This document shows positions 2,268-25,746 of a stretch of 64,000 nt of DNA, in pieces (the first letter of the stretch is position 1; each line of letters starts with the position of its first letter). The notes under the pieces were generated by a model, which was not told the origin of the DNA, ran no database searches, and was given only the letters and a program-made list of their open reading frames with translations. The translations under genes were made by a program, and so were the position numbers. Source of the DNA: Kushneria indalinina DSM 14324 (GTDB lineage: Bacteria > Pseudomonadota > Gammaproteobacteria > Pseudomonadales > Halomonadaceae); contig NZ_QRDJ01000006.1 of NCBI RefSeq assembly GCF_003385845.1, forward strand, positions 248,001-312,000, given 5' to 3'.

Positions 2268-3134
2268 ATGAGTGAACAGGAATACACGCCGCCCACGGTC
2301 TGGGAACCCAAGGAGAGTGGCGGCAAGTTTGCCAGCATTAACCGTCCGGTCGCCGGGCCTACCCATGACAAGGCGCTATCGGTCGGCAAGCATCCGTTTC
2401 AGCTTTACTCGCTGGCCACGCCCAACGGTGTGAAGGCCTCAATCATGCTCGAGGAGCTGCTGGCACTGGGCCATGAGGGCGCCGAGTACGATGCGTGGCT
2501 GGTCGATATCGGCGAAGGGGACCAGTTCGGCAGTGGCTTTGTCGAGGCCAACCCGAACTCCAAGATTCCGGCGCTGATGGATCACACCACCGAGACGCCC
2601 ACACGGGTGTTCGAATCCGGCTCGATTCTGCTCTATCTGGCGGAGAAGTTCGGCGAACTGCTGCCCGGTGAGCACGTGGCACGCACCGAAACCATGAACT
2701 GGCTGTTCTGGCAGATGGGCAGTGCGCCGTTTCTGGGCGGCGGCTTCGGCCACTTCTATGCCTACGCGCCGGTGAAGCTCGAGTATCCGATCGACCGCTA
2801 CACCATGGAAGCCAAGCGCCAGCTCGACGTGCTCAACCGCCATCTGGCCGATAATCAGTACATGGCCGGCGATGACTACACCATTGCCGACATCGCCATC
2901 TGGTCCTGGTATGGTCAGCTGGTGCTGGGTCGTCTGTATGACGCCGCCGAGTTCCTGCAGGTGGAGAGCTATGAGCACGTGATGCGCTGGGCGAAGGATA
3001 TCGATGCCCGCCCGGCCGTGCAGCGCGGTCGCATGGTCAATCGCACCTTCGGCGAGCCGGAAACCCAGCTCCACGAGCGCCACGATGCCAGCGACTTCGA
3101 CACCAAAACGCAGGACAAGATTGGTCAGAACTGA
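2268..3134 (+). CDS. yghU: Glutathione S-transferase family disulfide-bond reductase, YghU type
   Basis: A 288-residue cytoplasmic protein collinear with Escherichia coli YghU: an N-terminal extension with INRPVAGPTH, then PFQLYSLATPNG-KASIMLEELLALG, EANPNSKIPAL (thioredoxin-like GST_N domain, roughly residues 45-135) and an all-helical GST_C domain with the YTIADIAIW N-capping segment near residue 205. YghU binds two glutathione molecules and has disulfide-bond reductase activity; that is family knowledge, not visible here. It has its own ribosome site (AAGGAA) and a terminator, so it is monocistronic. Confidence 0.92.
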   Translation: MSEQEYTPPTVWEPKESGGKFASINRPVAGPTHDKALSVGKHPFQLYSLATPNGVKASIMLEELLALGHEGAEYDAWLVDIGEGDQFGSGFVEANPNSKIPALMDHTTETPTRVFESGSILLYLAEKFGELLPGEHVARTETMNWLFWQMGSAPFLGGGFGHFYAYAPVKLEYPIDRYTMEAKRQLDVLNRHLADNQYMAGDDYTIADIAIWSWYGQLVLGRLYDAAEFLQVESYEHVMRWAKDIDARPAVQRGRMVNRTFGEPETQLHERHDASDFDTKTQDKIGQN

Positions 3135-3159
3135 TCGCGTCCAATCCTGAACGACAAGA

Positions 3160-3185
3160 AGCCCGGCTCCGTGCCGGGCTTTTTG
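3160..3185 (+). terminator. Rho-independent terminator of yghU
   Basis: Perfect 8-bp stem AGCCCGGC / GCCGGGCT with a 5-base loop, then TTTTT. Confidence 0.9.
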
Positions 3186-3310
3186 ATGTCTGCAGCCTGA
3201 ATGCGCACGCTGGCGGCAACGTGTCGCGTGTCATCTGTCGCCCGGAACGACGGCGCTGCGTATGCTGTTGTCATCAAGAAAATGGATGAACCAGGCAAGG
3301 GGAAGCACCG

Positions 3311-4702
3311 ATGGAAGAGGGCAGCGTGAAGGATGATCGCCACGATGTGATCGTGATCGGCGGTGGCGCGACCGGGCTGGCGGCGGCGCGCATTCTGGCC
3401 CGACGCGGCAAACGGGTGGCGCTGCTGGAGCGCGAGGCGCGCGTGGGCGGCAATATCAGCAGCCGCAGTGATGGTGACTGGCAGACCGAGATCGGCCCCA
3501 ACACGCTGATCATGAAGCCCCCACTCTACAACCTGCTTGAGGAGATGGATCTGCTCAAGGAAGCGCAGTCCGCCGGGCCCCAGGCCCAAAAGCGTTTTGT
3601 GGCCATGGATGGTCGGCCGGTCGCGCTGCCGACCCACCCGCTGCGCGCCCTGAATAACCCATTGATCGGTCGCGAAGGCTGGTCGCAGATCGTGCGTGAA
3701 CCCTTTGTCAAACGCAGCAGTGCCCCTGAGGAGAGCCTGGCCGGCTTCGTCGAGCGCCGTCTGGGCCGGCGGGTGCTGGAGCGGATGGTCGATCCGTTTG
3801 TGTCGGGCGTTTATGCCGGTGACCCGCAACGGCTCTCGGTGCAGGCGGCCATGCCACGGCTGGTGGCGATCGAGCGTGAATACGGCTCGCTGATTCGCGG
3901 TGGAGTGGTGAAGTTCTGGCAGTCGCGCCGGGCCGAACCTGCCATGCCCACCGAGTGGCGGGGCAAGCTGGTGAGCTTCCCTGCGGGGCTGGGGCGCCTG
4001 GCCGAACGGCTCGGTGAAGAGATCGAGGCCCACGGCGGCGAGATCGCGTGTCAGTGTGACGTGGCCGCCATCAGCAAAGTAGATGATGGCTGGGAGGTGA
4101 TCGACAGCGAGGGGCGCATCCGGCGCACCCGCGAGCTGGTGCTGGCGGTCTCGGCACCCGTGGCCATCCAGCTTCTGGCGCCGCTGGACGAGGCGCTGAC
4201 CGCGCCACTCAATGAGATCGCCTATCCGCCGGTCAACGCGGTGGCGCTGGGCTTTCGCCGCGAGGACATCACGCATGCCCTCGACGGTTTTGGCGTGCTG
4301 ATCCCGAGCATCGAAAAGCGCCGCACGCTGGGGGCGCTGTTCTCCTCGACCATCTTTGACGGTCGTGCCCCGGACGGGCACTGCCTGATCAACGCCTTTA
4401 TCGGTGGTCGGCGTCAGCCTGAAGCGGCCGAGGGCAGCGATGCCGACCAGGTGCAGCAGGTCCTCTACGATCTGCGCGATCTGCTGGGCATTCGCGGTGA
4501 CCCGGTCTGGCAGCAGGTCAGCCGCTGGCCGCAGGCCATTCCGCAGTATGAGCTGGGCCATCTGGATCGGATCAAGCGGCTGGATCAAGCGCTGGAACAT
4601 CACGATGGTCTTTCGCTGGTGGGCAACTGGCGAGACGGTATCGCGGTGGGGGATTGCCTGGAAAATGGCCGTCTGCTCGGCGAGCGACTGGCCGCCGAAT
4701 AG
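3311..4702 (+). CDS. hemY: Protoporphyrinogen oxidase, oxygen-dependent HemY/HemG type
   Basis: A 463-residue FAD flavoprotein that oxidises protoporphyrinogen IX to protoporphyrin IX, the penultimate step of heme synthesis. The N-terminal dinucleotide fold is clear (VIVIGGGATGLAAARIL, residues 12-26), followed by the acidic ribose-binding E and GGNISS, and by EIGPNTL, typical of this amine-oxidase superfamily branch. The C-terminal FAD contact reads NWRDGIAVGDCLENG. Length matches bacterial HemY. It could also be annotated as a generic FAD-dependent oxidoreductase, but the overall pattern, including IGREGWSQIVREPFV, fits PPO well. It stands alone between a terminator and the PHO-like array. 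Confidence 0.87.
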   Translation: MEEGSVKDDRHDVIVIGGGATGLAAARILARRGKRVALLEREARVGGNISSRSDGDWQTEIGPNTLIMKPPLYNLLEEMDLLKEAQSAGPQAQKRFVAMDGRPVALPTHPLRALNNPLIGREGWSQIVREPFVKRSSAPEESLAGFVERRLGRRVLERMVDPFVSGVYAGDPQRLSVQAAMPRLVAIEREYGSLIRGGVVKFWQSRRAEPAMPTEWRGKLVSFPAGLGRLAERLGEEIEAHGGEIACQCDVAAISKVDDGWEVIDSEGRIRRTRELVLAVSAPVAIQLLAPLDEALTAPLNEIAYPPVNAVALGFRREDITHALDGFGVLIPSIEKRRTLGALFSSTIFDGRAPDGHCLINAFIGGRRQPEAAEGSDADQVQQVLYDLRDLLGIRGDPVWQQVSRWPQAIPQYELGHLDRIKRLDQALEHHDGLSLVGNWRDGIAVGDCLENGRLLGERLAAE

Positions 4703-4737
4703 TCGAGACGGCAGTGGAATCGGTGCAACCGTCGCCG

Positions 4738-4777
4738 CTGTCGTTGTCCTGTCATATTCATTGCCCAGGATTGTCAT
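4738..4777 (+). promoter_or_regulatory. Candidate PHO box (PhoB-type 11-bp direct repeats) upstream of the phn importer
   Basis: Heptamers occur at exact 11-bp steps: CTGTCGT at 4738, CTGTCAT at 4749, a weak ATTGCCC at 4760 and TTGTCAT at 4771. The first two with their spacer closely match the known PhoB consensus CTGTCAT-N4-CTGTCAY. A possible -10 hexamer (TATAGA, 4781-4786) follows, about 20 bases before the PhnD start. It implies induction of the importer by phosphate starvation. Confidence 0.75.
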
Positions 4778-4806
4778 CTCTATAGAACAATCCGGGGAAT
4801 GAACTC

Positions 4807-5766
4807 ATGCGAACGACCTCCTTTAGCGCGCTGGCTGCCTTTCTGCTGGCCCTGCCGCTGGCGCAGACGGCTCAGGCCGATTTTCAGTTGAGCAGCCGCT
4901 ACAGCGACAGCGACGGCGACATGGTCGCGGATGTGCCCACCGATTCTTCGCAGTGGCGCGATCCGAGCACCCTCATCTTTGCCTACACCCCGGTCGAGGA
5001 CCCGGCCATGTACGCCGACGTGTGGTCAGGTTTTCTCGATCACATGAGCGAGGTGACCGGCAAGCGGGTGCAGTTCTTCCCGGTGCAGTCCAATGCCGCA
5101 CAGATCGAGGCGATGCGCGCCGGCCGTCTGCATGTGGCCGGCTTCAGTACCGGCACCACACCGCTGGCGGTGGCCTGCGCCGGCTTTCGCCCCTTCACCA
5201 TGATGGCCGCCGAGGATGGCGCCTTTGGCTATGAGATGGAGATCATCACCTGGCCGGGCTCCGGCATTGACGATGTCGAGGGTCTCAAGGGCAAGGAAAT
5301 GGCCTTCACGTCTGAAACCTCCAACTCGGGTTTCAAGGCGCCGTCGGCGATTCTGGATGCCGAGTTCGGCCTCCAGGCCGGACGCGACTACGAGACAGTG
5401 TTCTCCGGGGCGCACGACAGCTCGATCCTGGGGGTCGTCAATCATGACTATACCGCCGCGGCGATTGCCAACTCGGTGCGCGATCGCATGGTCGAACGCG
5501 GCGTGGTACAGGCCGATCAAATGACGACGCTCTATACGTCGCAGACGTTCCCGACCACCGGCTATGGCGTGGCCCATGACCTCAATCCCGAACTGCAGGA
5601 GAAGATTCAGGAGGCCTTCCGGACCTTTGACTGGCAGGGCTCGGGGCTTGAGAAGGAGTTTGGCAGCGGTGGCGAGTCGCAGTTTGTCGAGATCAACTTC
5701 AAGGACGACTGGGAAGTGATTCGCACCATCGATGAGGCCAACGGCGTGAGCTACGAGTGCGGTTGA
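4807..5766 (+). CDS. phnD: Phosphonate/phosphite-type ABC transporter substrate-binding protein
   Basis: A 319-residue periplasmic protein. Residues 1-24 form a Sec signal peptide ending AQTAQA before DFQ. The mature part has the PhnD pattern: [11 protein letters not shown] at the start, [32 protein letters not shown] in pieces, and [12 protein letters not shown], equivalent to the ligand-contacting T-S-N-S-G-x-x-x-P segment of PhnD/PtxB. A GGGGAA ribosome site precedes it. It delivers substrate to the permeases encoded downstream. No C-P lyase or phosphite dehydrogenase gene is nearby, so phosphonate, phosphite, hypophosphite or phosphate remain possible ligands. Confidence 0.88.
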
Positions 5767-5830
5767 TGTCTATGGCGCCACTCATCCGGCCGGGCGATGG
5801 GCGCCCGGCCGCCACTCATGGAGGCGTGTC

Positions 5831-6646
5831 ATGCTGACCCTCAAGGGGCTCTCCAAAACCTATCGCACCGGCGACAGTGCTCTAAACGAGGTTTCCTTCA
5901 CCGTGCCGGGCGGCCAGATCGTGGGCCTGATTGGCCCTTCGGGGGCCGGCAAGTCGACCCTGATTCGCTGCATCAACCGGCTGGTCGAGCCCACCGCCGG
6001 CCAGGTCCTGCTGGGCAATATCGACCTGACGCGACTGGGTGGCGCCGGGCTTCGCACCCAGCGCCGGCGCATCGGAATGATCTTTCAGGAATATGCCCTC
6101 GTCGAGCGCCTGACCGTGATGGAGAACGTGCTTTCCGGCCGACTCGGCTATGTGCCGTTCTGGCGCAGCTGGACGCGTCGTTTTCCGGCCGAGGATATTC
6201 AGCGCGCCTGGGCGCTGCTGGACCGCGTGGGCCTGATGGCGCACGCCAACAAGCGCGCCGATGCACTCTCCGGCGGCCAGCGCCAGCGCGTCGGTATCGC
6301 CCGGGCGCTGGCCCAGGAGCCGGAGCTTTTGCTGATTGATGAGCCCACCGCCAGTCTTGATCCGCGCACCAGCCGCCAGATCATGCGGTTGCTCACCGAT
6401 ATCTGCGCCGAGCGCCATCTGCCGGCCATCGTTAACATCCACGATGTGCCGCTGGCAAAGCAGTTCGTGCAGCGCCTGATCGGGCTGCGCGCCGGCCAGG
6501 TGGTCTTTGACGGCGCGCCGCAGGCACTCGATGAGGCCATGCTGACGCATATCTATGGCGAGGAAGACTGGCAGCCGGCCGCGCCGGAGGAGGATGACGC
6601 GCCACCCGAGCCGACCATCACCGACGCGCGGGCGCTGGTCTCATGA
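5831..6646 (+). CDS. phnC: Phosphonate/phosphite ABC transporter ATP-binding subunit
   Basis: A 271-residue ABC ATPase. Walker A is GPSGAGKST (residues 36-44), the Q-loop is in FQEYALV, the ABC signature is [15 protein letters not shown], Walker B is [13 protein letters not shown], and the switch histidine lies in NIHDVPLAK. The insert [14 protein letters not shown] between Q-loop and signature is characteristic of PhnC. A GGAGG ribosome site lies 6 bases upstream. The last codons overlap the first permease by ATGA. It powers import through the two PhnE-type permeases on the cytoplasmic face. Confidence 0.95.
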
Positions 6647-7449
6647 GCACCTCGAACTATCCGCGCCACTGGAAGCGCCCACCGCAGATCATCCAGCACC
6701 CGGGCTGGCGGCTGGGGCTGGGGATTGCCGCCATGGTGTATCTGGTGCTGGCGATCGGCTCCCTGGAGATCGACTGGCAGCGGGTCAGCATCGGCCTGGA
6801 GCGTGGCCAGCGCTTCGTGGTGGGCTTTCTGCAGCCGGATTTTGTCAGCCGTCAGCGCGATATTGTGCAGGGGCTGAGCGAGAGCCTGACCATGACGCTG
6901 ACCTCGACCGTGGTCGGCATTCTCATATCGATCCCGATCGGCATCGGCGCGGCGCGCAATCTAACGCCGCGGCCGGTCTATCTGGTGTGTCGCTCTATCA
7001 TTGCGGTCAGCCGCTCGCTGCAGGAGATCATCATCGCCATCTTTTTGGTAGCGATGTTCGGTTTTGGCCCCTTTGCCGGATTTCTGACGCTCGCCTTTGC
7101 CACCATCGGCTTTCTGGCCAAGCTGCTGGCCGATGATATCGAGGAGGCAAGCCACGCGCAGCTCGAAGCGATACATGCCACCGGCGCCTCCTGGTGGCAG
7201 ATGATCAACTACGCCGTCGAGCCGCAGGTGCTGCCGCGCCTGATCGGGCTGTCGCTCTATCGCCTTGACATCAACTTTCGCGAAAGCGCGGTGATCGGCA
7301 TTGTCGGCGCCGGCGGCATCGGTGCGACGCTCAATACCGCCATCGATCGCTACGAGTACGACAGCGCCGGTGCCATTTTGCTGATCATCATCGCCATCGT
7401 GATGGTCTCGGAGTACACCTCGGGGCTGGTGAGGAAATGGGTACAATGA
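6643..7449 (+). CDS. phnE: Phosphonate/phosphite ABC transporter permease, first PhnE-type subunit
   Basis: A 268-residue inner-membrane permease with about six hydrophobic segments. The BPD_transp_1 coupling loop reads [26 protein letters not shown], conserved EAA-type, followed by the membrane segment with [15 protein letters not shown], which is highly typical of PhnE. The start overlaps phnC and the end overlaps the second permease. Two adjacent PhnE-type permeases are common for this importer family and suggest a heterodimeric channel. Confidence 0.93.
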
Positions 7450-8258
7450 ACGAGCCACAACACTACTCGCAGCTGTGGCAGTGGCGCACGCCGCGCGTGC
7501 AGCTGCTGCTCTGGGCCGGCTGGCTGGCGCTGGTGGCACTGTTTGTCTGGTGCTGGCAGGTGATGACCCAGGACACCATCTGGGCGTTCGTGCTGGATGC
7601 CCCGGCGCAGGCCGCCGATATCGGCAGTCGGATGGTGCCACCGCGCTGGGGCTATCTGCCCGAGCTGATGGCGCCGCTGTGGGACACGCTCAATATCGCC
7701 ACCCTGGGCACGCTGGGTGGGGTGATCATGGCCGTGCCGGTCGCCTTTCTGGCTGCGCGCAATACCACCCCGAGCGTGGCGCTGGTGCGCCCGGTGGCGC
7801 TTTTCATCATCGTGACCTCGCGCTCGATCAACTCGCTGATCTGGGCGCTGCTGCTGGTCGCCGTCATCGGCCCCGGGCTGCTGGCCGGCATCGTGGCCAT
7901 CGCGCTGCGCTCGATCGGCTTTGTGGCCAAGCTGTTGTATGAAGCGATCGAGGAGACTGACGCCCGCCAGATCGAAGCCATTGCTGCGACCGGCGCCGGT
8001 CGTGCCCAGGTCCTCAACTACGCCTACCTGCCACAGCTGCTGCCGGCCTTTTGCGGCATTTCGGTCTTTCGCTGGGACATCAACATCCGCGAAAGCACGA
8101 TTCTCGGACTGGTCGGTGCTGGCGGTATCGGGCTCAAGCTGCAGGCCTCGCTCAACGTGCTCGCCTGGCCGCAGGTCACCATGATTCTGCTTTTGATCCT
8201 GGGCACGGTGGTGATCAGCGAGTGGGTCTCGGCGCGGATTCGACGGGCGATTATTTAG
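7446..8258 (+). CDS. phnE: Phosphonate/phosphite ABC transporter permease, second PhnE-type subunit
   Basis: A 270-residue permease, homologous to the preceding one: IEAIAATGAGRAQVLNYAYLPQ is the coupling loop and RESTILGLVGAGGIGL the conserved membrane motif. An ATG at 7437 is also in frame, but 7446 is preferred because it gives an ATGA overlap with the upstream stop and puts GAGGAA 9 bases before the start, whereas at 7437 the ribosome site would abut the start codon. It completes the D-C-E-E operon. A long hairpin lies shortly after the stop. Confidence 0.92.
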   Translation: MNEPQHYSQLWQWRTPRVQLLLWAGWLALVALFVWCWQVMTQDTIWAFVLDAPAQAADIGSRMVPPRWGYLPELMAPLWDTLNIATLGTLGGVIMAVPVAFLAARNTTPSVALVRPVALFIIVTSRSINSLIWALLLVAVIGPGLLAGIVAIALRSIGFVAKLLYEAIEETDARQIEAIAATGAGRAQVLNYAYLPQLLPAFCGISVFRWDINIRESTILGLVGAGGIGLKLQASLNVLAWPQVTMILLLILGTVVISEWVSARIRRAII

Positions 8259-12240: not shown

Positions 12241-12881
12241 GACAGCCCTCCCAGATAGACCAGTGAAAAAATGCCGATCCAGACGATGTCCAGGAAGTGC
12301 CACAGGATCGCCAGGCGCAGAATGCCGGTCTTGACCGGAGCGTCCAGGCCGTGGACGGCCATCTGACCCAGAAGGGCCACCAGCCAGATACAGGCGCCGG
12401 TCACGTGCAGGCCATGCAGCGGCACCAGCGAGAAAAACGCCGACAGATAGCCGCTGCGCGAGGGCACGCCGCCCTTGTCGAACATGCTGTGAAAGTCCTT
12501 GAGCTCGAAGAACAGAAACGCAAGGCCAAGCGCCAGCGTGACCAGCAGCCACACCACCAGGCGCGCCTTGTCTTCGCGGTACTTGAGGGCAAGGGAGGCC
12601 ATGCCGAAGGTGACGCTGCTGACCAGCAGGATCATGGTCTGAATGAAGGCGCTTTTGAGTTCGAAAAGCTCTTTGGGCCCCGGCCCGCCGGCGGTGCCGC
12701 CCAGCATGGTGACGTAGGTGGCAAACAGCAGCCCAAATAAAATCAAATCGCTCATCATGAACACCCAGAAACCGAACACCATCTCCTCGCGGGTGTCCTC
12801 TTCCTGGGCGTGCGCCGGCCCCAGATTGAGGCCGGGATGGCGACTGTTGCCTTCAAGCGCGCGAGTGTTGCCTGAACTCAT
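12237..12881 (-). CDS. cyoC: Cytochrome bo3 ubiquinol oxidase subunit III
   Basis: A 214-residue protein with five predicted membrane segments, homologous to cytochrome c oxidase subunit III. Conserved pieces are FGFWVFMMSDLILFGLLFATYV and the C-terminal LAILWHFLDIVWIGIFSLVYL, and the length is close to the roughly 200 residues of CyoC. It overlaps cyoB and cyoD by ATGA on both sides, so the subunits are probably made in fixed proportion by coupled translation. Confidence 0.95.
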   Translation of the reverse strand: MSSGNTRALEGNSRHPGLNLGPAHAQEEDTREEMVFGFWVFMMSDLILFGLLFATYVTMLGGTAGGPGPKELFELKSAFIQTMILLVSSVTFGMASLALKYREDKARLVVWLLVTLALGLAFLFFELKDFHSMFDKGGVPSRSGYLSAFFSLVPLHGLHVTGACIWLVALLGQMAVHGLDAPVKTGILRLAILWHFLDIVWIGIFSLVYLGGLS

Positions 12882-14983
12882 TGCACGGCTCCCTCGATGG
12901 GTGGCACGGGTCGACCGTGATTGGAGGTGGTCTGCTCAAGCGACCGGTCGATCGGGTGGGTCAGCCTGACCTGTTCCAGCCAGTGCTCGTGGGTGCGCTG
13001 TACTTCACAGGCTGCAATGGTGCGGGTGGTGGTGCGCCCAAAGCCGCGGGCGATGACGGCGACCAGCGTTACCAGACCCGCGCCGATCACCAGCCACCAC
13101 ATGTACCAGGTCAGGCCAAAGGCCATGGCCAGACCGGTGATGCCAATGATTACGCCCATGGCACTGTTGGCCGGCATTTCGATATCGTCGTATCGATCCG
13201 GCGCCTGCCAGCCCTGGCCGCGGTCCTTCTCGGTCATGAAGGCATCGATGCTGTAGATTTCGGGAATCACCGGGAAGTTGTATTCCGGCGGCGGTGATGA
13301 GATGCCCCATTCCAGCGTTCGGCCATCCCAGGGGTCGCCGGCAAAGACGTTGTTGGCGTGACGGTCGCGAATGCTCACCCATAGCTGGATCAAAAGGCAC
13401 AAAAGCGCCGCCAGGATCACCAGGGCGCCGATACCGGCGGTAATCATCCAGGGCACATACTGCGGTTCGAAATACGCCACCGAGCGACGCGGCATGCCCA
13501 TCAGCCCCAGCACGTAGAGCGGGAAGAAGGCCAGCATGAAACCGATGATCCAGCAAAAGGCGGCCCGGTAACCCCAGCGCTCTTCCAGACGAAATCCGAA
13601 GGCCTTGGGGAACCAGAAGTTGGTCGCGCTGAGCATGCCGAACAGGAGCCCGGGGATCAGCATGTTATGAAAGTGGGCAATCAGAAACAGCGAGTTGTGT
13701 ACCTGATAGTCCACGCTGGGCGTGGCGAGGATGATGCCGGTCATGCCGCCCAGCACGAACAGCATGATAAAGCCGATGGCATAGACCATCGGTACCGACA
13801 GGCGGATGCGCCCGCGGTACATGGTCAGCATCCAGTCATACACCTTCACCCCGGTGGGAATGCCGATCAGCATGGTGGCGATGCCGAAGGCGGCGTTGAT
13901 GTGCGCGCTCTGGCCCATGGTGAAAAAGTGATGCAGCCAGACGGTAAACGACAGGATCGCAATGCACATGGTGGCAATGACGAGGATTTTGTAGCCGTAG
14001 ATGCGCTTGCCGGAGAAGGTGGCAAAGATCTCGGAGAAGATGCCAAAGGGCGGCAGGATCAGAATGTAGACCTCGGGGTGACCAAAGGCCCAGAGCAGAT
14101 TGACGTAGTTCATCATGTTGCCGCCCAGATCGGTGGTGAACATGTGAAAGTCGAGATAGCGATCCAGCGCCAGAAGCCCTGTGGCCACAGTCAGCGGTGG
14201 CATGCCAAAGATCATCAGAATCGCCGTGCACAGCGCCGTCCAGGTAAAGAGCGGCATGCGAAAGAGCGTCATGCCCGGGGCGCGTTTTTTGAAGATGGTG
14301 ACGGCGAAGTTGATGCCGGTCAGCGTCGAAGAGAGCGTGGAAAGTGTCACCGCCCAGAGCCAGTAATCGACCCCCGCGCCGGGATTATAAGAAAGCTCCG
14401 TAAAGGGCGGGTAGCCGGTCCAGCCGCCGGTGGAAAAGGGCGCCAGTACCAGCGAGATCATGGTCAGGGCCGCGCCGGCCGCCGTCAGGCCGAGACTTAT
14501 CTGGTTCATGACCGGAAAGGAGAGATCCCGCGCGCCGATCTGCAGGGGCATCACGTAGTTGATAATGCCGGTCAGAAACGGCATCGCCATGAAAAAGATC
14601 ATGATCGTGCCGTGGGTGGTAAAGAGTTCCCCGAAATGCTCGGCGGTCAAAAAGCCGCCATCGAGCCCCACCGCCTGCTGAGCGCGCATGAACACGGCCT
14701 CAATGATGGCGCGTGACAGCATCACAAGGGCAATGACGATAAACATGATGCCGATCTTTTTATGGTCGGGGCTGGTCAGCCACTTCGACCACAGGTACTT
14801 CCACTTGCCAAGCCAGGTCACCAGCACGATGGCCGCCAGTATCCCCAGCACCACCATGCCGGCCGCGCCGGTGGCGATCACGCCGTTGATGATGCTCATG
14901 GCCGAATGATCGTCCAGCATGCTCCAGAAGGGCAGCGCGTCCCAGCCAAGACGGCCAAAAATCAGGCTCGTTGCATCGCTCAT
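12878..14983 (-). CDS. cyoB: Cytochrome bo3 ubiquinol oxidase subunit I
   Basis: The 701-residue catalytic heme-copper subunit that reduces O2 to water and pumps protons. Every redox ligand of the E. coli enzyme is present at a constant offset of 18: His124 and His439 (low-spin heme b), His302 with Tyr306 (CuB and the cross-linked Tyr, in GHPEVYILI), His351-His352 (CuB) and His437 (heme o3, in LIAHFHN). It is somewhat longer than E. coli CyoB (663), with extra residues at both ends. It overlaps cyoA and cyoC by ATGA. Confidence 0.98.
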   Translation of the reverse strand: MSDATSLIFGRLGWDALPFWSMLDDHSAMSIINGVIATGAAGMVVLGILAAIVLVTWLGKWKYLWSKWLTSPDHKKIGIMFIVIALVMLSRAIIEAVFMRAQQAVGLDGGFLTAEHFGELFTTHGTIMIFFMAMPFLTGIINYVMPLQIGARDLSFPVMNQISLGLTAAGAALTMISLVLAPFSTGGWTGYPPFTELSYNPGAGVDYWLWAVTLSTLSSTLTGINFAVTIFKKRAPGMTLFRMPLFTWTALCTAILMIFGMPPLTVATGLLALDRYLDFHMFTTDLGGNMMNYVNLLWAFGHPEVYILILPPFGIFSEIFATFSGKRIYGYKILVIATMCIAILSFTVWLHHFFTMGQSAHINAAFGIATMLIGIPTGVKVYDWMLTMYRGRIRLSVPMVYAIGFIMLFVLGGMTGIILATPSVDYQVHNSLFLIAHFHNMLIPGLLFGMLSATNFWFPKAFGFRLEERWGYRAAFCWIIGFMLAFFPLYVLGLMGMPRRSVAYFEPQYVPWMITAGIGALVILAALLCLLIQLWVSIRDRHANNVFAGDPWDGRTLEWGISSPPPEYNFPVIPEIYSIDAFMTEKDRGQGWQAPDRYDDIEMPANSAMGVIIGITGLAMAFGLTWYMWWLVIGAGLVTLVAVIARGFGRTTTRTIAACEVQRTHEHWLEQVRLTHPIDRSLEQTTSNHGRPVPPIEGAVQ

Positions 14984-16038
14984 GGCTGCGCCTCCTTGTG
15001 CTGATGTGAGGACGATTGCGGGTCGGAAGCGGAAGATGTGTCATCGTCTGGGGGTGTTTGAATCACGCTGGTACGGGTGGCCCCCAGCTGCGGCGGCGAG
15101 ACATCAGTCGTTGACCAGTCGATGGGCGAGCCCTCCATGATGATATGGAAGAGCCCGTCCGGCACCGGCGCGAAGCGAATCACCGCGTCGCTGTCATGCG
15201 TATCAAGACCGAGGGCGCGCGCCGCATCGCGGTTGTCACCCTTTTGCGCGATGATTTTGTAGGCACTTTGATTCAGCGGTTGCCCCTGCTCCCGGGTGCG
15301 CTGAACAAAGTCGTCAAAGGCGTCATCATCCACGGCGCGGGTAATAAAGCGCTGGCGGTGAAAGCCCTCGCCGTTGTACTGCATGTTCTTGCCTTCGAAA
15401 CGGCCCGGGTGATCCGCCTTGAGGTGTAGCCGGGTCACCATGCGGTTCATGACATCGATCTGGCTGCCCAGCGCCGGGATAAAAAACGACTGCAAAACCG
15501 TGGCCGAGGTGAGCGAAAAGGCGATTGGTCGATCCACCGGGATAACCAGCTGACCCATCGTGGCGATCCCCTGGTCGGGATAGATGAAAAGCCATTTCCA
15601 GTCGTAGCCCACGACCTGTATTTCCAGTGGCGGCTTGTCGCCGGCAATGGGTCGGTAAGGGTCAAGCTCATGGGTCTGGCGCCAGACATAGACGCTTAAA
15701 ATGGCAACGATCAGGATCGGTACCGCCCACATGACGATATCCAGCCAGCGCGACATGTACCATTTGGGTCGGTACACCGCGTGGCCGCGATAACGATAGC
15801 GCCACAAAATCAGCGGCGTCTGTATGATGACCGGGATCACCACGATCATGACCAGTGCGATGACGACCCAGAAATGATAACGCTGTGCCTCGGCGACCTG
15901 TCCCTGCGGGTTCATGAAGCCGGGCATGTCAGCGCCGCAGCCTGACAGCGCTACCAGGGGAAGCAGTACCGGGAAAAGGTGCAGAGCGCATCTTCCGCCC
16001 TGGCGTAAAAAGTATCCTGTGCGTCCCTTCACGGACAT
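14980..16038 (-). CDS. cyoA: Cytochrome bo3 ubiquinol oxidase subunit II
   Basis: A 352-residue lipoprotein subunit. The N-terminal signal ends in the lipobox LSGC with Cys34 as lipidation site; two transmembrane segments follow (around residues 54-76 and 100-118), then the periplasmic cupredoxin domain from GYDWKWLFIYPD onward. No CuA cysteine pair is present, as expected for a quinol oxidase. The C-terminus is extended beyond the E. coli length by an acidic then Ser/His-rich tail (DDDTSSASDPQSSSHQHK). First gene of the operon, transcribed away from the nucleoside deaminase. Confidence 0.95.
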   Translation of the reverse strand: MSVKGRTGYFLRQGGRCALHLFPVLLPLVALSGCGADMPGFMNPQGQVAEAQRYHFWVVIALVMIVVIPVIIQTPLILWRYRYRGHAVYRPKWYMSRWLDIVMWAVPILIVAILSVYVWRQTHELDPYRPIAGDKPPLEIQVVGYDWKWLFIYPDQGIATMGQLVIPVDRPIAFSLTSATVLQSFFIPALGSQIDVMNRMVTRLHLKADHPGRFEGKNMQYNGEGFHRQRFITRAVDDDAFDDFVQRTREQGQPLNQSAYKIIAQKGDNRDAARALGLDTHDSDAVIRFAPVPDGLFHIIMEGSPIDWSTTDVSPPQLGATRTSVIQTPPDDDTSSASDPQSSSHQHKEAQP

Positions 16039-16203
16039 ATCTCCTCAATCCTTGATACGAGATAGTTCCCTATGTCTCGACGTGCTCCGAGTCGGGCACC
16101 ACTATAGCCAGACATTGTCGCTTAAGCATTACTGAAGGTTACGATCGGGGCGTTTTTTGATCCCGTTCGACACGTCTCAATCCCAGGCAAGGAAGCGCAT
16201 CAC

Positions 16204-16734
16204 ATGATCAATGAAGAGAGTCACAGGCATCTTGAGCGCTGTGTAGCGCTGGCGCGCGAGGCCCTTGAGGCCGGCGATGATCCCTTTGGCAGCGTGCTGG
16301 TCGATGGCAGTGGCGAGGTGTTGCAGGAAGCGCGCAACTGCGTGGTGACAGGGGATGCCACCGAGCATCCGGAGCTTGCGCTGGCGCGCTGGGCGGCGGC
16401 GCACATGACCCCCGAGGCGCGCGCCCGTGCCACGGTCTATACCTCAGGCGAGCACTGCCCGATGTGCGCTGCCGCCCACGCCTGGGCGGGGTTGGGGCGT
16501 ATTGTCTTTATCAGTTCCTCGGAGCAGCTGGGCGAATGGCTTGCGCAGCTCAAGGCGCCGGCCTCACCCGTGCGCATGCTGCCCATCCACGCGATCGCGC
16601 CTGAGGTGGTGGTAGAAGGGCCGGTCACGGCGCTGGTGGATGCCGTTCGGGCACTGCATGAAAGACGCCATCGCACGCCTCACAACACGCCCCACAAAAG
16701 GGTCCTGCCGTTCACTGGATCGTTTGAACGCTAG
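16204..16734 (+). CDS. Nucleoside deaminase, cytidine/guanine deaminase-like zinc enzyme
   Basis: A 176-residue cytoplasmic zinc hydrolase. The ligand/catalytic motif is His55-Pro-Glu57 and the second zinc motif is GEHCPMCAAA with Cys85 and Cys88, so all catalytic residues are present even though the usual HAE reads HPE. DPFGSVLVDGSGEVL is the conserved N-terminal strand. It belongs to the guanine deaminase/TadA-like branch, but the base or nucleoside deaminated is unknown. It is divergent from cyoA across 165 bases and its stop overlaps the convergent ndpA-like gene by 4 bases. It differs from TadA, which is encoded separately in this window. Confidence 0.8.
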   Translation: MINEESHRHLERCVALAREALEAGDDPFGSVLVDGSGEVLQEARNCVVTGDATEHPELALARWAAAHMTPEARARATVYTSGEHCPMCAAAHAWAGLGRIVFISSSEQLGEWLAQLKAPASPVRMLPIHAIAPEVVVEGPVTALVDAVRALHERRHRTPHNTPHKRVLPFTGSFER

Positions 16735-17729
16735 CCGCGCTGATCGAGCAGCTGCGCCTTCAGCTTGTCGGGCACCTTCTTGATGATCAGCCGGTCCTGC
16801 GTCTCGTTGTACTCGATGCTGTCGCCGAGCAGGTGGGAGTCAAAGCTGATCGACATGCCGCTGGCGCGCCCGGTAAAGCGGCGAAACTGCTGCAGGGTGC
16901 GCTTGTCTGGCGGGATTTCCGGAGAGAGGCCGTAATCCTTGTTGCGGATGTAGTCATAAAAGGCGTCCGGACGTTCGTCATCCACCAGGCTTGAAAACTC
17001 CTCGAGGGTAATCGACTCACCGCGCTTTGACTGATCGCTGGCGTAGTCGATCACCGCATCGGTCTTCTCGCGACTCCGGGACTCATCCATCGACTCGCTT
17101 TCGACATAGTCGCTGAAGGCCTTGAGCAGGGTGCGGGTCTCGCTGGTGGCATCCACGCCCTCGGTGCAGCCGAGAAAGGCCTGAAATTCTTCGCTGAGCT
17201 TCTTGCCGCCGCGATCGCGGGTGAAGGCAATATATTGCTTCGACTGACCGGCCTGCCACTGGGTCAGGTCGATGCGTACGGCCAGCGTCATCTGGTTCAG
17301 GTTGAGCTGGCGGCCCGTGGTGACATTGAACTGCTCATCGAGCGTGAAGCCCTCCCGATAGTGGAGCAGGGCCACGGTCAGAAATTCGGCTTCGCCCTGG
17401 CGGGCATGAACGAACAGTAGCGGGCCCCCGGTGGGAAGATGCTCATCAATCAGCGTGCGAAAGCCTTCGGCGCCCTGCTGTGTAAAGGCGACAAAATCGA
17501 GATTGCCGGCCAGGTACTCGCTCAAGGATTTGGAAAACGCGCTCTGCGACCCGTCACCGTTAAAATGCCCCCAGCCCTTGGTCTTGCCGTTGAAGGTTGC
17601 ATTGAAGTGGTTGAGCAGGCTCTCCATGGCCGCTGACTCGGCCATGGGGGATTGTGCAGCGCTGAGTGTCGCGTTCTGGTCGTCGGCGGACTTGTCGAGA
17701 TGATGGACGATGCTTTGAAGAATCGGCAT
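16731..17729 (-). CDS. yejK: Nucleoid-associated protein NdpA/YejK family
   Basis: A 332-residue cytoplasmic protein resembling YejK/NdpA: the N-terminal MPILQSIVHHLDK, then a central GPLLFVHARQGEAEFLTVALLHYREG region and YIAFTRDRGGKKLSEEFQAFLGC, with a C-terminal FRRFTGRASGMSISF segment. YejK associates with the nucleoid; its biochemical role is not settled. The frame is open for 35 codons upstream of the chosen ATG, but family proteins begin at this hydrophobic/His segment. The ribosome site is weak. Monocistronic, converging with the deaminase gene. Confidence 0.82.
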   Translation of the reverse strand: MPILQSIVHHLDKSADDQNATLSAAQSPMAESAAMESLLNHFNATFNGKTKGWGHFNGDGSQSAFSKSLSEYLAGNLDFVAFTQQGAEGFRTLIDEHLPTGGPLLFVHARQGEAEFLTVALLHYREGFTLDEQFNVTTGRQLNLNQMTLAVRIDLTQWQAGQSKQYIAFTRDRGGKKLSEEFQAFLGCTEGVDATSETRTLLKAFSDYVESESMDESRSREKTDAVIDYASDQSKRGESITLEEFSSLVDDERPDAFYDYIRNKDYGLSPEIPPDKRTLQQFRRFTGRASGMSISFDSHLLGDSIEYNETQDRLIIKKVPDKLKAQLLDQRG

Positions 17730-21518: not shown

Positions 21519-22391
21519 ATGAAAATTCCCAAACGATTACAGCCACTGGTAGATGATGGGCTGATCGATGACATCGTGTTTCAGCTTCAAAGTGGCAAGG
21601 AAGCTCAGGTCTACGTGGTGCGCTGTGGCAGTGAGCTGCGCTGTGCCAAGATTTTCAAGGAGGCCAGCAAGCGCAGTTTCAAGCAGGCCGTTCAGTATCA
21701 GGAAGGACGCCAGGTCCGTAACAGCCGCCGGGCAAGGGCCATGTCCAAGAAAACGCGCTATGGTCAGCGCGAGCAGGAGTCCGCCTGGCTCAATGCCGAG
21801 GTCGAGGCGCTGTACCGGCTCTCGGACGCCGGCGTGCGCGTGCCCGAGCCGCATGGCTTCGTCGATGGCGTGCTGCTCATGGAGATGATCGTTGATGACG
21901 AGGGCGACCCCGCGCCGCGTCTTGATGACATCAAGCTCAGTGAAGCGCAGGCGATCGAGTACCATCACCGCATCGTGGTCGATGTGGCGCGCATGCTGTG
22001 TGCCGGGCTGGTGCATGGCGATCTGTCGGAATTCAACGTGCTGGTCGGCCGTGAAGGGCCGGTCATCATCGATCTGCCGCAGGCCGTTGACGCCGCCGGC
22101 AACAACAATGCGCCGCGCATGCTGCTGCGGGACGTGGACAACATGCGCCGCAGTTTTGGCCGCTATGCGCCATCGCTTTTGAACACCGACTACGGGCTCG
22201 AGATATGGTCACTCTATGAGGCCGGCGAACTTCATCCCGACTACCCGCTGACCGGCACCTTCGATCGTGACAGTGCCAGCGTGGATGTCAGTGACCTGCT
22301 GGAGGTCATCGAGGACGTGCGCGAAGAAGAGGAAGATCGCCGGCGTCGCGAGCAGGAGCAGGAAGAAGAGGACCGGGACCTCAGTCAATAA
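21519..22391 (+). CDS. RIO1-like serine protein kinase
   Basis: A 290-residue RIO-family atypical kinase as found in Pseudomonas-type bacteria. The catalytic loop is GLVHGDLSEFNVL with Asp168 and Asn173; the metal-binding Asp185 lies in VIIDLPQAV, the RIO form of DFG. Lys44 in CAKIF is the likely ATP lysine. The N-terminus KRLQPLVDDGLIDDIVFQLQSGKEAQVYVV matches the RIO N-lobe (cited in pieces). The C-terminus is a Glu/Arg-rich helix. Bacterial RIO proteins have no settled substrate. It lies 99 bases after dbpA and converges with the EAL gene, with an 11-base tail overlap. Confidence 0.87.
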   Translation: MKIPKRLQPLVDDGLIDDIVFQLQSGKEAQVYVVRCGSELRCAKIFKEASKRSFKQAVQYQEGRQVRNSRRARAMSKKTRYGQREQESAWLNAEVEALYRLSDAGVRVPEPHGFVDGVLLMEMIVDDEGDPAPRLDDIKLSEAQAIEYHHRIVVDVARMLCAGLVHGDLSEFNVLVGREGPVIIDLPQAVDAAGNNNAPRMLLRDVDNMRRSFGRYAPSLLNTDYGLEIWSLYEAGELHPDYPLTGTFDRDSASVDVSDLLEVIEDVREEEEDRRRREQEQEEEDRDLSQ

Positions 22392-24300
22392 GCGGCTGAT
22401 GCGACGGTGGCGGCATTGCACTCGAGTGGAGCAGTGCCGTCATGGCCTCCTCGCCGAGCGGGCGGCTGAAGTGATATCCCTGCAGGCAGTGCGCGCCGAG
22501 TTCGCACATGATGCGTGCGACCTCGGCCGACTCGATCCCTTCTGCGGTGACATCCAGACCGCAGGCCTGGGCAATCTGAATGATGGCCCGCACGATCGTG
22601 ATGTCCCGCTCGGCGTGCTCTTCGGCCAGCTTGAGCACAAAGCTCTTGTCGATCTTGAGGATATCCAGCGGCATCCACTGCAGATAGCTCAGCGCACTGT
22701 ACCCGGTGCCGAAGTCATCAAGCGCCAGTCTGACCCCGAGCTGGCGCAGACGGGCCAGACGGTTGAGCACCGCCTTCTCGGCGCTGATGTAAAGGCTCTC
22801 CGTAATTTCCAGGATCAGACAGCTTGCCGGCAGGCCACTTGTCTTCAGCGCGTCGATGACGTGGTTGACGAAGGCTTCTTCACGCAGCTGTATCGGTGAG
22901 ACGTTGACCGAGATGTTCTGGAAAGCCTCCTGTTCATGACGCCATCGTGCAGCCGTGTGGATGACGTCATGCAGCATTTGCCGCCCCACCTCGCGTATGA
23001 GTCCCTGCTCCTCCAGAAGGGGAATGAATTCGGCAGGGCCGGGCGCATCGGGGGCCTGCCAGCGCAGCAGCGCTTCAGCGCCCACAATCCGGTAGTCGCG
23101 CGAGACGATGGGCTGAAAGAACGCCACAAATTCCTGACGGGTGACGGCCTGGCGCACGCGCATGGCCAGCTGCTTGCGCCGCTCGAGCTGCTCGGCAATC
23201 TCGGCATCAAAGCGGCGCAGGCTGGTACTGCCATGCTCGCGGGCATGGCTCAGGGCAGTATCGGCTGCGTAAAACAGGGCGTGACCGTCGCTGGCATCCT
23301 CGGGATAGAGGGCAAGGCCGGCACTGAAGGCCGGATCGATACGGTAATGATCCAGCATCAAGGGTTTGGTCAGATCGGCCAGCAGATCCCGGACGATGGT
23401 GCCGGCATGGGCGGTGTCGATCAGGGGCAGCAGCAGGACGAATTCATCGCTGCCCAGACGGGCCACGCTGCGACTCAAGGGTTCATTTTCGAGCCGACGC
23501 GCGATCTCGAACAGGTAACGGTCAGCGATTTCATGACCGTAGTCTTCATTGATTTCGCCAAATCCGGCCAGATCGATATACAAAAGCGCCATCGGTCGCG
23601 TATCGATGGTGATGGTTTCAAGATCCCGAAAGAAGGCGGCTCGATTCAGGGCGCCGGTCAGGACATCACGCCAGGCCATGCGCTCGATCGCCTGCCGGTC
23701 GCGCTCGCTCTTGTAGATATGAGCCAGCTCGCGCACCAGCGCCAGCACCATCTCCTGGCTGAAGGTGGTGTCTTCATCGTCCCGATAGGAGAACAGCTCC
23801 AGCGCGCCCATGCACTGTTCACCGATGCCGATACCGCAGAGAAGACGCCGATGCATGTTCTCCGGCCAGCGCTTCTCGTGAGTGATGCGCTCATCCATGA
23901 GGATGTCGAGCGGGCTGGCCTGTTCAAGCCACACCCGTGCCGAGGCCGTCAGGCTGACTCCGGGGCGGGTTAGCGGGTTTTCGCCCTCACACAGGGCAGA
24001 GACACGCACCGGCGGGGTAATGTTGTCAAAGGGCTTGTAGACGACCCGACAGTAGCGCCAGGCGGTATGTTTCAACAGTGCCTTGAGGGCCTCTTTGGTG
24101 GCCTGACGAAGACGCATGCCACCGTGGGCATGGGTGGCAACCTGTGAGATGGCCTGAAGCTTTAACTGCTCGCGATAAAGTCGACGCGTGCTGGTCTCGG
24201 CAACCTGCTCTGCATCACGGCGGGCCTGACGCTCACGCGCCAGCTGCCGTTGCAGGCGTTCGATGGTGTCGGAGAGGCTTTCCGGTGGTGGTTTTTTCAT
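22381..24300 (-). CDS. H-NOX-associated GGDEF/EAL protein (c-di-GMP phosphodiesterase, probable inactive cyclase)
   Basis: A 639-residue cytoplasmic protein without membrane segments. Order: coiled coil (about 10-50), a GAF-like sensory region (50-200), GGDEF (205-370), EAL (380-630). The GGDEF site reads GSDEF (283-287), and the upstream D-x-D-x-F-K motif is altered (IDLAGFGEIN), so cyclase activity is doubtful. The EAL domain keeps E409-A-L, N466, E498, D528-D529 in LALDDFGTGYS, K552, E588 and Q607, so c-di-GMP hydrolysis is expected. Its ATG overlaps the H-NOX stop (ATGA), the arrangement of known H-NOX-associated c-di-GMP enzymes. Confidence 0.92.
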   Translation of the reverse strand: MKKPPPESLSDTIERLQRQLARERQARRDAEQVAETSTRRLYREQLKLQAISQVATHAHGGMRLRQATKEALKALLKHTAWRYCRVVYKPFDNITPPVRVSALCEGENPLTRPGVSLTASARVWLEQASPLDILMDERITHEKRWPENMHRRLLCGIGIGEQCMGALELFSYRDDEDTTFSQEMVLALVRELAHIYKSERDRQAIERMAWRDVLTGALNRAAFFRDLETITIDTRPMALLYIDLAGFGEINEDYGHEIADRYLFEIARRLENEPLSRSVARLGSDEFVLLLPLIDTAHAGTIVRDLLADLTKPLMLDHYRIDPAFSAGLALYPEDASDGHALFYAADTALSHAREHGSTSLRRFDAEIAEQLERRKQLAMRVRQAVTRQEFVAFFQPIVSRDYRIVGAEALLRWQAPDAPGPAEFIPLLEEQGLIREVGRQMLHDVIHTAARWRHEQEAFQNISVNVSPIQLREEAFVNHVIDALKTSGLPASCLILEITESLYISAEKAVLNRLARLRQLGVRLALDDFGTGYSALSYLQWMPLDILKIDKSFVLKLAEEHAERDITIVRAIIQIAQACGLDVTAEGIESAEVARIMCELGAHCLQGYHFSRPLGEEAMTALLHSSAMPPPSHQPLID

Positions 24301-24833
24301 CGGATCGTAATGCGAAAAAGGCAGTGCTCATCACCGCGGTGGCGACACTGGATATGGTCGATCTCAACGCTTTCGTTGAAATAATCACTACAGCCCTGCA
24401 TGAGCCCGTGGGCAAGGCTGCAGATGCCGCGCGCCGAACGATATTCCATCACCATGCTGTTGGTGGATACCTCATGATAATGAAAGACCGGTACAACGGC
24501 ATCGGGGTGATACCTGACCACCTCCGGATGGATGACATTGTTGAGTGCCTTGAGCGTGGAAAATGTCGTGTTAAAGCGCTCAAGCATGCCCGGATAAAAA
24601 CTGCCAAGACGCGGCAGCATCTCTCGCCCCATCCAGTGAAGACATTGCTGAGGCGTCATGCCCAGGTGGTGACTGGCCGCACCCACCAGAGCAAACATAT
24701 CCTGATCGTCGTAGTTGCCAAGCGATGAATAGGCGCCGCTGACCCGGGCATTTTCGAGCAACGCCTCCCAGGTCTGTTCGTTAAAGCGACTGACCACGAT
24801 ATCGTTAAACATGTTGAAAATAATGCCCTTCAT
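24297..24833 (-). CDS. H-NOX (heme-NO/oxygen-binding) sensor protein
   Basis: A 178-residue soluble heme sensor. It starts MKGIIFN, the H-NOX hallmark. His102 in NVIHPEV is the proximal heme ligand at exactly the usual position, and Y131-x-S133-x-R135 (YRSAR) is the propionate-binding signature. The C-terminus CRHRGDEHCLFRI is also typical. In facultative anaerobes and other proteobacteria such proteins bind NO and control a partner kinase or c-di-GMP enzyme. The start is supported by AAGGGAG 8 bases upstream and by ATGA overlap with the preceding gene's stop. It overlaps the GGDEF/EAL gene downstream, so this is its likely partner. Confidence 0.93.
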   Translation of the reverse strand: MKGIIFNMFNDIVVSRFNEQTWEALLENARVSGAYSSLGNYDDQDMFALVGAASHHLGMTPQQCLHWMGREMLPRLGSFYPGMLERFNTTFSTLKALNNVIHPEVVRYHPDAVVPVFHYHEVSTNSMVMEYRSARGICSLAHGLMQGCSDYFNESVEIDHIQCRHRGDEHCLFRITIR

Positions 24834-25489
24834 GCCCTGACTCCCTTCGTGGTCATCCATGCCTGATCATATGCTGGCTGCCTCACCATATCGGCCAAAC
24901 GATGACGGGCTGAAGCCTGATCGGTGTCGCCGCGAGAGCAGGCCCTTGCCATGTCCAGATGCTCTTCAAGGCCCGGCAGTGCTTCATCGGCGAACTCCTT
25001 GAGCTCGGCATCATCAAGCATCTCGGAGGCGCGCTTGGAAAAGGCAACGGCTTCTTCATGCGCTTCTACCTGAAGGTCGGCAAAGCTTGCATCAAACGAG
25101 CTGCCATCCTGAACCATCAGCCTGGGAGCACCGGTCAGCGCGGTCATGTTGGCCGTGGAGGAGAGATCGAGATCCTTGTTCTGGGCAATGGACTTCAGCT
25201 TGTCCTGAACCTCGGTATGATCCTTTTGAAGACGCTCGGCCAGCTGGCGGGTGTCAGGCGAGATGTCGTCCTTGTCGAGTGCCATTTCGGCCGCATTAAG
25301 CTCACCGCTATTGATGGCAGAGGCGCCGTCGGCAAAATTCTCTGGCGTCATCTCTTCCTGATTCTGCTCCTCGACATGGTCCTGCTGTTCCATGTTCTGA
25401 TTCTGCTCGTCTGCCTGGGCGAGCGGTACGGTGGCACCAAAAACCAGGGCCAGCGTGCCGGCAAACAGGGCGTTGCGTTGATTGAACAT
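24830..25489 (-). CDS. DUF4142 family exported protein, first gene of the H-NOX operon
   Basis: A 219-residue exported protein. A signal peptide (MFNQRNALFAGTLALVFGATVPLAQA) is followed by a Gln/Glu/Asn-rich linker to about residue 55 and then a helical DUF4142 domain with the family's ferritin-like helix pattern, including DHTEVQDKL, EAHEEAVAF and LPGLEEHLDMA. DUF4142 proteins are periplasmic and of unproven function. The stop overlaps the H-NOX start by ATGA. An AAGGA ribosome site is 6 bases upstream of the chosen ATG. Its placement ahead of a cytoplasmic NO sensor suggests a co-regulated stress or redox role; this is inference. Confidence 0.8.
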   Translation of the reverse strand: MFNQRNALFAGTLALVFGATVPLAQADEQNQNMEQQDHVEEQNQEEMTPENFADGASAINSGELNAAEMALDKDDISPDTRQLAERLQKDHTEVQDKLKSIAQNKDLDLSSTANMTALTGAPRLMVQDGSSFDASFADLQVEAHEEAVAFSKRASEMLDDAELKEFADEALPGLEEHLDMARACSRGDTDQASARHRLADMVRQPAYDQAWMTTKGVRA

Positions 25490-25515: not shown

Positions 25516-25746
25516 CCATGCCCGTAATAATCAAAACAGGTGATGTGTTATATTCCTGTAATTAAACATTAAAATTATCTAATATTATTGGTGCTGTCTT
25601 TCTGACGGGTCATTTTTCAATGAAGTGCGTGAAGATGGCACGGGCAATGGTTTGAGAAAGCCGGGCAGGGGTGGCTTTATCCAGGATCACGCATATAGTG
25701 GAAGACCGAGCACTCCTGTTGACACGACGCCTCCTGAAAAGCCGAT

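What the first reader, a model, noticed from the sequence alone, without database searches (positions are those of the whole stretch)
22381..25489. DUF4142 - H-NOX - GAF/GGDEF/EAL operon: a likely NO-to-c-di-GMP switch
Three minus-strand genes overlap by ATGA at each junction. The H-NOX protein keeps His102 and YxSxR; the partner has an intact EAL site. H-NOX/c-di-GMP enzyme pairs control biofilm dispersal in Shewanella and Legionella (established). A third, exported gene at the head of the operon is what I find unusual.
Basis: partly seen in the sequence, partly recalled or inferred. Interest (0 to 1): 0.78.

Follow-up and report, generated by a model that had tools for sequence, protein, structure and literature searches.

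The report
Nitric-oxide switch with accidental operon neighbour
A salt-loving bacterium carries a familiar type of gene pair in which a probable nitric-oxide sensor sits beside an enzyme that breaks down the biofilm signal c-di-GMP; the odd third gene in front appears to have been joined to the pair by a small DNA deletion in this species rather than by a shared job.

Summary
In detail: DUF4142 (24830-25489), H-NOX (24297-24833) and GGDEF-EAL (22381-24300) lie on the minus strand with ATGA overlaps. H-NOX keeps His102, Tyr131-Ser133-Arg135 and a zinc-type Cys138/His160/Cys163/Cys171 set; the EAL residues are intact. A GAF domain was not recognised, and the GGDEF motif is degenerate (GSDEF). 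The H-NOX/phosphodiesterase pair is a new member of a known kind. DUF4142 at its head is best explained by a deletion. In Kushneria pakistanensis the same DUF4142 has its own stop, a strong hairpin and 458 nt before H-NOX. In the window, DUF4142 codons 192-219 are former H-NOX upstream sequence, still present in two relatives without DUF4142. Over 275 Halomonadaceae genomes the families do not associate (24 and 24 genomes, 2 shared, p = 1.0). Two other Kushneria keep the enzyme but have an H-NOX gutted by a ~342-nt internal deletion. A side result may matter more: many H-NOX partners (GGDEF-EAL enzymes and kinases) begin with a shared helix. Genome-wide it occurs mainly beside H-NOX genes, and in 11 cases it marks a candidate partner about 13 kb away. 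It may be a docking element; this is untested.

The parts
24830..25489 (-). DUF4142 protein, 219 aa, signal-peptide-like N-terminus, with a 28-residue C-terminal extension
   Evidence: translation; Pfam DUF4142 residues 49-183, 4.6e-27; signal peptide read by eye
24833..24916 (-). DUF4142 codons 192-219: former upstream region of H-NOX read through after loss of the DUF4142 stop; deletion junction at 24916/24917 beside GATCAG
   Evidence: alignments to K. pakistanensis (G123), G120 and G125
24297..24833 (-). H-NOX (HNOB) protein, 178 aa; His102, Y131-S133-R135, Cys138/His160/Cys163/Cys171
   Evidence: zinc ligands by alignment with 2kii and PMC7108781 passages
22381..24300 (-). GGDEF-EAL protein, 639 aa; EAL residues intact, GGDEF motif degenerate (LGSDEF)
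24148..24264 (-). N-terminal helix of the partner (residues 13-51), shared with many H-NOX partners
   Evidence: modelled as one helix in residues 9-83, with pLDDT mostly 55-78 over residues 11-50 and below 50 from residue 50 on
23227..23676 (-). GGDEF domain (residues 209-358), motif GSDEF
22459..23160 (-). EAL domain (residues 381-614)
25584..25613 (-). promoter-like site upstream of DUF4142 (9 of 12 consensus matches; no better than chance for the region)
   Evidence: 2 found, 1.4 expected in shuffles

Best explanation
An H-NOX sensor and a GGDEF-EAL enzyme form a two-gene module. NO binding to the H-NOX heme (inferred) is passed by direct contact, perhaps through the enzyme's N-terminal helix (inferred), to the EAL phosphodiesterase, lowering c-di-GMP and favouring dispersal (direction inferred from Shewanella woodyi and Legionella). 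The GSDEF domain probably no longer makes c-di-GMP and may be regulatory (inferred). DUF4142 is not part of the module: in an ancestor it was a separate upstream gene with its own stop, as still seen in K. pakistanensis. In the window's lineage a deletion of roughly 380 nt removed the stop, the hairpin and most of the spacer, so DUF4142 now reads through the old H-NOX upstream sequence and ends in an ATGA overlap with H-NOX (shown by comparison; the polarity is inferred by parsimony). H-NOX may now be transcribed from the DUF4142 promoter and translationally coupled to it (inferred).
For: Family hits and residues. The pair is orthologous, 80-87% identical in the enzyme and 82-84% in H-NOX, in three further Kushneria genomes. 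In G123 = K. pakistanensis (named by the contig length) DUF4142 ends SGDQ-TAA, followed by a 10-bp GC-rich hairpin (-24.9 kcal/mol for the 70-nt stretch, z -4.4, 0 of 200 shuffles as good; the fused window stretch has z 0.15) and 458 nt before H-NOX, against 83 nt from the matching point in the window. The window's codons 192-219 align with the sequence just upstream of H-NOX in G123, G120 and G125; G120 and G125 have no DUF4142. DUF4142 and H-NOX are independent across 275 genomes (24 and 24 over cut-off, 2 shared, Fisher p = 1.0). Of 50 further H-NOX genomes (50 of the 80 loci), 8 had DUF4142 and only K. pakistanensis has it within 5 kb of the H-NOX match, judged by coordinates.
Against: Only one relative (G123) shows the separated state, and the tree does not firmly place it (supports 37 and 59). 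The terminator scan did not list the G123 hairpin, which has no strong T-run, and found no minus-strand promoter-like site in the G123 spacer, so the lost H-NOX promoter is a guess. The upstream sequence is open in the same frame in G123 (45 codons between stops) and lies in a 105-aa ORF in G120, so a small coding role there is not excluded. No binding, activity or transcript data. P0003 without an adjacent H-NOX occurs in G119, and with only an H-NOX remnant in G121 and G122, so the enzyme can serve without the sensor.
Confidence: 0.8

Rival explanations
1. DUF4142 is a selected member of an NO-response operon: an exported helical protein made together with the sensor, for example for envelope protection.
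For: The overlap in the window is real and would allow translational coupling. DUF4142 is also next to H-NOX, on the same strand, in K. pakistanensis.
Against: 2 of 10 Kushneria genomes; no association in 275 genomes; a stop, hairpin and spacer in the other genome; no paper in the library holds both terms.
Confidence: 0.1
2. The H-NOX acts mainly as a thiol/redox sensor through its Cys/His zinc-type site rather than as an NO sensor, as reported for heme-free Vibrio cholerae H-NOX and for Caulobacter H-NOX.
For: Cys138/His160/Cys163/Cys171 line up with the S. oneidensis ligands Cys139/His161/Cys164/Cys172 (alignment; PMC7108781 passages). In Caulobacter only Cys oxidation, not NO, made H-NOX inhibit its kinase (PMC12329717 passages).
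Against: The heme ligand and YxSxR are kept, which fits heme binding. The two inputs are not exclusive. In K. phyllosphaerae (G125) and K. pakistanensis (G123) the second residue of YxSxR is Cys, a further variable thiol.
Confidence: 0.2
3. The DUF4142/H-NOX fusion is an assembly error in this genome.
For: No reads or second strain could be examined.
Against: The junction keeps an open frame and an ordinary upstream sequence, and the site has no long repeat that would be expected to collapse (read by eye).
Confidence: 0.05

Closest known systems
Shewanella woodyi H-NOX / SwDGC (SWOO_2751/SWOO_2750)
   Same: Adjacent H-NOX and GGDEF-EAL genes; NO reported to lower c-di-GMP (PMC8738867 and PMC8846402 passages).
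   Different: SwDGC is reported to have working GGDEF and EAL domains; here GGDEF reads GSDEF. The S. woodyi protein itself was not aligned here.
Legionella pneumophila Hnox1 / Lpg1057
   Same: H-NOX controls an adjacent c-di-GMP enzyme.
   Different: There the cyclase is the active part and the phosphodiesterase domain is likely inactive (PMC8738867 passage); here the EAL residues are intact.
H-NOX/HnoK kinase systems (Shewanella oneidensis, Vibrio, Caulobacter)
   Same: Same sensor family with the same zinc-type ligand set; many kinase partners carry the same N-terminal helix.
   Different: The output here is a c-di-GMP enzyme, not a kinase.
DUF4142 (PF13628)
   Same: Pfam hit of 95.4 bits against a cut-off of 27.
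   Different: Carries a 28-residue extension read from former H-NOX upstream sequence.

Membership tests
H-NOX (HNOB) | HNOB profile match over the curated cut-off | tested here: met
   134.4 bits against 25.5
H-NOX (HNOB) | Proximal heme histidine and YxSxR | tested here: met
   H102, Y131, S133, R135
H-NOX (HNOB) | Heme and NO binding | not testable with these tools
   needs purified protein
H-NOX-associated c-di-GMP enzyme | Gene adjacent to H-NOX, with GGDEF and EAL domains | tested here: met
H-NOX-associated c-di-GMP enzyme | Intact EAL residues | tested here: met
   E409, N466, E498, D528, D529, K549, E587 invariant in 8 rows; roles recalled
H-NOX-associated c-di-GMP enzyme | Intact GGDEF signature (diguanylate cyclase) | tested here: not met
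   LGSDEF in the window, K. phyllosphaerae and K. pakistanensis
H-NOX-associated c-di-GMP enzyme | Activity changed by H-NOX and NO | not testable with these tools
   needs an enzyme assay
GAF-GGDEF-EAL architecture | Recognisable GAF domain | tested here: inconclusive
   no Pfam GAF hit, hhalign negative, low-confidence model; partial BLASTP to a GAF_2 protein
DUF4142 | PF13628 match over the cut-off | tested here: met
Conserved DUF4142-H-NOX operon | Recurrence of the gene order in relatives | tested here: not met
   2 of 24 family genomes with H-NOX have DUF4142 over cut-off; fused order only in the window

The most novel reading that the evidence does not exclude
The N-terminal helix of the partner (consensus LxRxLxRExxARKxAExLLExKSxELYxAN) is a dedicated H-NOX docking module shared by otherwise unrelated outputs (GGDEF-EAL enzymes and histidine kinases). 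It lets H-NOX partners be recognised from sequence alone, including kinases about 13 kb from their sensor. In Kushneria the same locus shows the sensor being gutted while the enzyme is kept, and a stop-loss deletion putting the sensor behind an unrelated gene's promoter.
Probability: 0.4. Interest if true: 0.65.

Novelty: new member of a known kind. Interest (0 to 1): 0.4.

Why it matters
It warns against reading function from overlapping genes: here a small deletion produced a textbook ATGA operon junction in one species. It also offers a natural comparison: the same enzyme with a working sensor, with a gutted sensor, or with none, within one genus. If the helix is a docking element, partners of H-NOX could be found from sequence alone, and the long-standing question of how one small sensor controls both kinases and c-di-GMP enzymes becomes directly testable.

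Tried and rejected
Structure of DUF4142: AlphaFold gave pLDDT 46 from a two-row alignment, too poor for a fold search, so none was run. By sequence, DUF4142 had no solved relative (best E 0.3, a designed diiron protein). GAF domain: tests, inconclusive. Promoter and terminator scans were near chance level except for 9 terminator-like sites against 2.8 expected in the window region, which I did not interpret. Papers on DUF4142: 10 in the listing, none opened, none chosen as explaining its function. A paper search on promoter capture found nothing.

The helix as H-NOX-specific: not fully. In the class sample 6 of 21 genomes with the helix had no HNOB match (G121 with the remnant; G394 and G524 with GGDEF-EAL proteins and no H-NOX found; G547; and two weak ones, G360 and G478), and 11 of 26 HNOB genomes had no helix. 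In the family 9 of 24 HNOB genomes had none. The regex was devised after seeing partner sequences, and A4 contains rows from some of the genomes searched, so sensitivity there is partly circular. One search is the only hold-out.
Full report
WHAT IS THERE. DUF4142 is at 25489-24830, H-NOX at 24833-24297 and the GGDEF-EAL gene at 24300-22381, all on the minus strand, with ATGA shared at 24830-24833 and 24297-24300. Pfam supports DUF4142 (4.6e-27), HNOB (4.7e-39) with V4R, and GGDEF plus EAL. Neighbours are a DEAD-box helicase with a DbpA domain and a RIO-domain protein on one side, and GNAT, DUF3817, AraC-type and zinc-dehydrogenase genes on the other. The window lies in contig 1 of a 3.75-Mb genome. 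Two relatives in its genus group have contigs of the same length as Kushneria phyllosphaerae EAod3 (G125) and K. pakistanensis KCTC 42082 (G123), so I take the genus to be Kushneria.

THE SENSOR. P0002 aligns end to end with S. oneidensis H-NOX (2kii, 1.6e-25). His102 and Y131/S133/R135 are kept. Cys138, His160, Cys163 and Cys171 align with the four zinc ligands Cys139, His161, Cys164 and Cys172 named in PMC7108781 (passages seen), so a second, redox input is possible. NO selectivity against O2 was not tested.

THE ENZYME. P0003 has an EAL domain in which E409, N466, E498, D528, D529, K549 and E587 are invariant across 8 H-NOX-linked relatives; their catalytic roles are recalled. The GGDEF signature is LGSDEF in the three Kushneria rows of that alignment, so I expect a phosphodiesterase without cyclase activity (inference). 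The GAF domain remains unproven.

HOW IT PROBABLY WORKS. In S. woodyi and L. pneumophila NO-bound H-NOX lowers c-di-GMP through the adjacent enzyme (PMC8738867 and PMC8846402, passages seen). By analogy, NO here should raise EAL activity and favour dispersal. Nothing in these data shows heme binding, NO binding or regulation. In Caulobacter, NO-bound H-NOX did not inhibit its kinase and only cysteine oxidation did (PMC12329717, passages), so the analogy can fail.

WHY DUF4142 IS IN FRONT. Of 10 Kushneria genomes, 4 have an HNOB match, 7 have the enzyme at E<=1e-100 and only 2 (G000 and G123) have DUF4142. In G123 DUF4142 ends with its own TAA. A 10-bp GC-rich stem-loop follows; its 70-nt stretch folds at -24.9 kcal/mol (z -4.4), while the fused window stretch has z 0.15. 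The H-NOX start codon comes 458 nt after that stop. In the window the DUF4142 reading frame does not stop there. It runs on for 28 codons into sequence that aligns with the stretch immediately upstream of H-NOX in G123, G120 and G125, and G120 and G125 have no DUF4142 at all. The upstream stretch therefore belonged to H-NOX before it became the tail of DUF4142, and the simplest history is a deletion of roughly 380 nt (378 nt separate the equivalent points in G123). The DUF4142 end (GATCAG before TAA in G123) and the upstream stretch of G121 and G122 share GATCAG (read by eye), a possible short direct repeat for the deletion.

LIMITS OF THAT ARGUMENT. Only one genome shows the separated state. 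The tree of the locus leaves G000 and G123 unresolved (supports 37 and 59). The terminator scan did not call the hairpin and no minus-strand promoter-like site was found in the spacer. The upstream stretch is open in the same frame in G123 and lies inside a 105-aa ORF in G120, though it is out of frame in G125 (by eye), so it may encode a small peptide.

DOES THE PAIRING RECUR? In 275 Halomonadaceae genomes, 24 have HNOB over its cut-off and 24 have DUF4142 over its cut-off (27 at E<=0.001). Two have both, as chance would give (Fisher p = 1.0). Among the 24 HNOB genomes, two more have sub-threshold DUF4142 matches, on other contigs than their H-NOX. Of 80 H-NOX loci, 50 were given: 8 of the 50 genomes have DUF4142 and only K. 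pakistanensis has it within 5 kb of H-NOX by coordinates. A single-sequence search of the ORFs in 109 fetched loci found DUF4142 only at the window and K. pakistanensis loci, plus a weak hit (0.00076) in G120 that is the shared upstream stretch. No paper in the library holds both H-NOX and DUF4142.

THE SENSOR IS BEING LOST. G121 and G122 keep the enzyme (82% identical), but their H-NOX is a remnant. In G121 a single 342-nt internal gap starting at H-NOX nucleotide 26 removes roughly residues 10-123, including His102. In G122 the gap starts at the same place and covers about the same stretch, with a small aligned island that is probably spurious. G119 has a more distant enzyme (55%) between DUF3817 and the RIO gene, with no H-NOX match. 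The enzyme therefore has uses without the sensor.

A SHARED HELIX IN H-NOX PARTNERS. Aligning the partner with other H-NOX-linked enzymes showed a conserved N-terminal helix. A strict pattern built from it occurs in 49 of 101 ORFs directly downstream of H-NOX and in 0 of 1032 other ORFs of at least 150 aa in the same loci (two genomes are counted twice, and the pattern was made after seeing partners). A 39-row profile (A4) was then run over whole genomes. In the family it hits 17 of 275 genomes: 15 of the 24 HNOB genomes, plus G121 and G122 with the remnant (Fisher p 8e-17). In a sample of 369 genomes of the class it hits 21; 15 of these are among the 26 HNOB genomes (p 1.9e-15). Relatedness is not corrected for in these p values.

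WHERE THE HELIX LIES. In both surveys together 32 distinct H-NOX/helix pairs lie in one genome and contig: 20 are 69-147 nt apart, one is 1207 nt, and 11 have the helix 12.7-13.3 kb upstream. One of the 11, G071, was checked: the helix protein is a PAS-HisKA-receiver-Hpt protein beside a second kinase, and the gene after H-NOX is a sigma-54-type response regulator. That arrangement suggests a kinase-regulator chain with the sensor placed at the far end (inference). Of 27 helix matches in the class survey 17 are in such pairs and 10 are not. A profile trained on 15 rows from outside the Gammaproteobacteria (by record title) gave 37 hits in 30 of 30 gammaproteobacterial loci that I picked, 31 of them within 250 nt of the H-NOX end (the other six have domain E-values of 98 or more). 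It gave 12 such hits in 29 class loci and 6 in 26 Halomonadaceae loci. I found no description of this helix in the library (searches; listings only), which does not show that it is unpublished.

VERDICT. The H-NOX/phosphodiesterase pair is a new member of a known kind. The striking third gene is most likely an accident of deletion. The helix signature and the gutted sensors in sister species are the parts worth following.

Noticed in passing
L057 (G121) about 4784-4965 and L058 (G122) about 4532-4728: H-NOX remnants with a shared internal deletion start, directly before an intact GGDEF-EAL gene.
   Followed up: partly
L027, L028, L060-L139 partner ORFs; window 24148-24264: Shared N-terminal helix in H-NOX partners of several output types.
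   Followed up: partly
L246 (G071) 12838-17186; L244 (G495) 28-4286: Overlapping or closely spaced sensor genes about 13 kb from H-NOX, the second with the helix, across a cluster with glycosyltransferase-like genes.
   Followed up: partly
L241 (G524) 4314-5822 and 6455-7984; L240 (G394) 6099-7628: GGDEF-EAL proteins with the helix, in a genus without HNOB matches; another sensor may use the same helix.
   Followed up: no
L039 (G125), H-NOX at 3803-4495: K. phyllosphaerae has a second, different H-NOX followed by a likely response regulator, of the type with the helix kinase about 13 kb away.
   Followed up: no
L029 (G120) near 3835-3870: A 17-nt tandem duplication right at the H-NOX start, which moves the end of the upstream ORF away from H-NOX.
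   Followed up: no
L045 and similar loci of genus g20: A diverged H-NOX with a PAS-GGDEF-EAL partner that lacks the helix.
   Followed up: no
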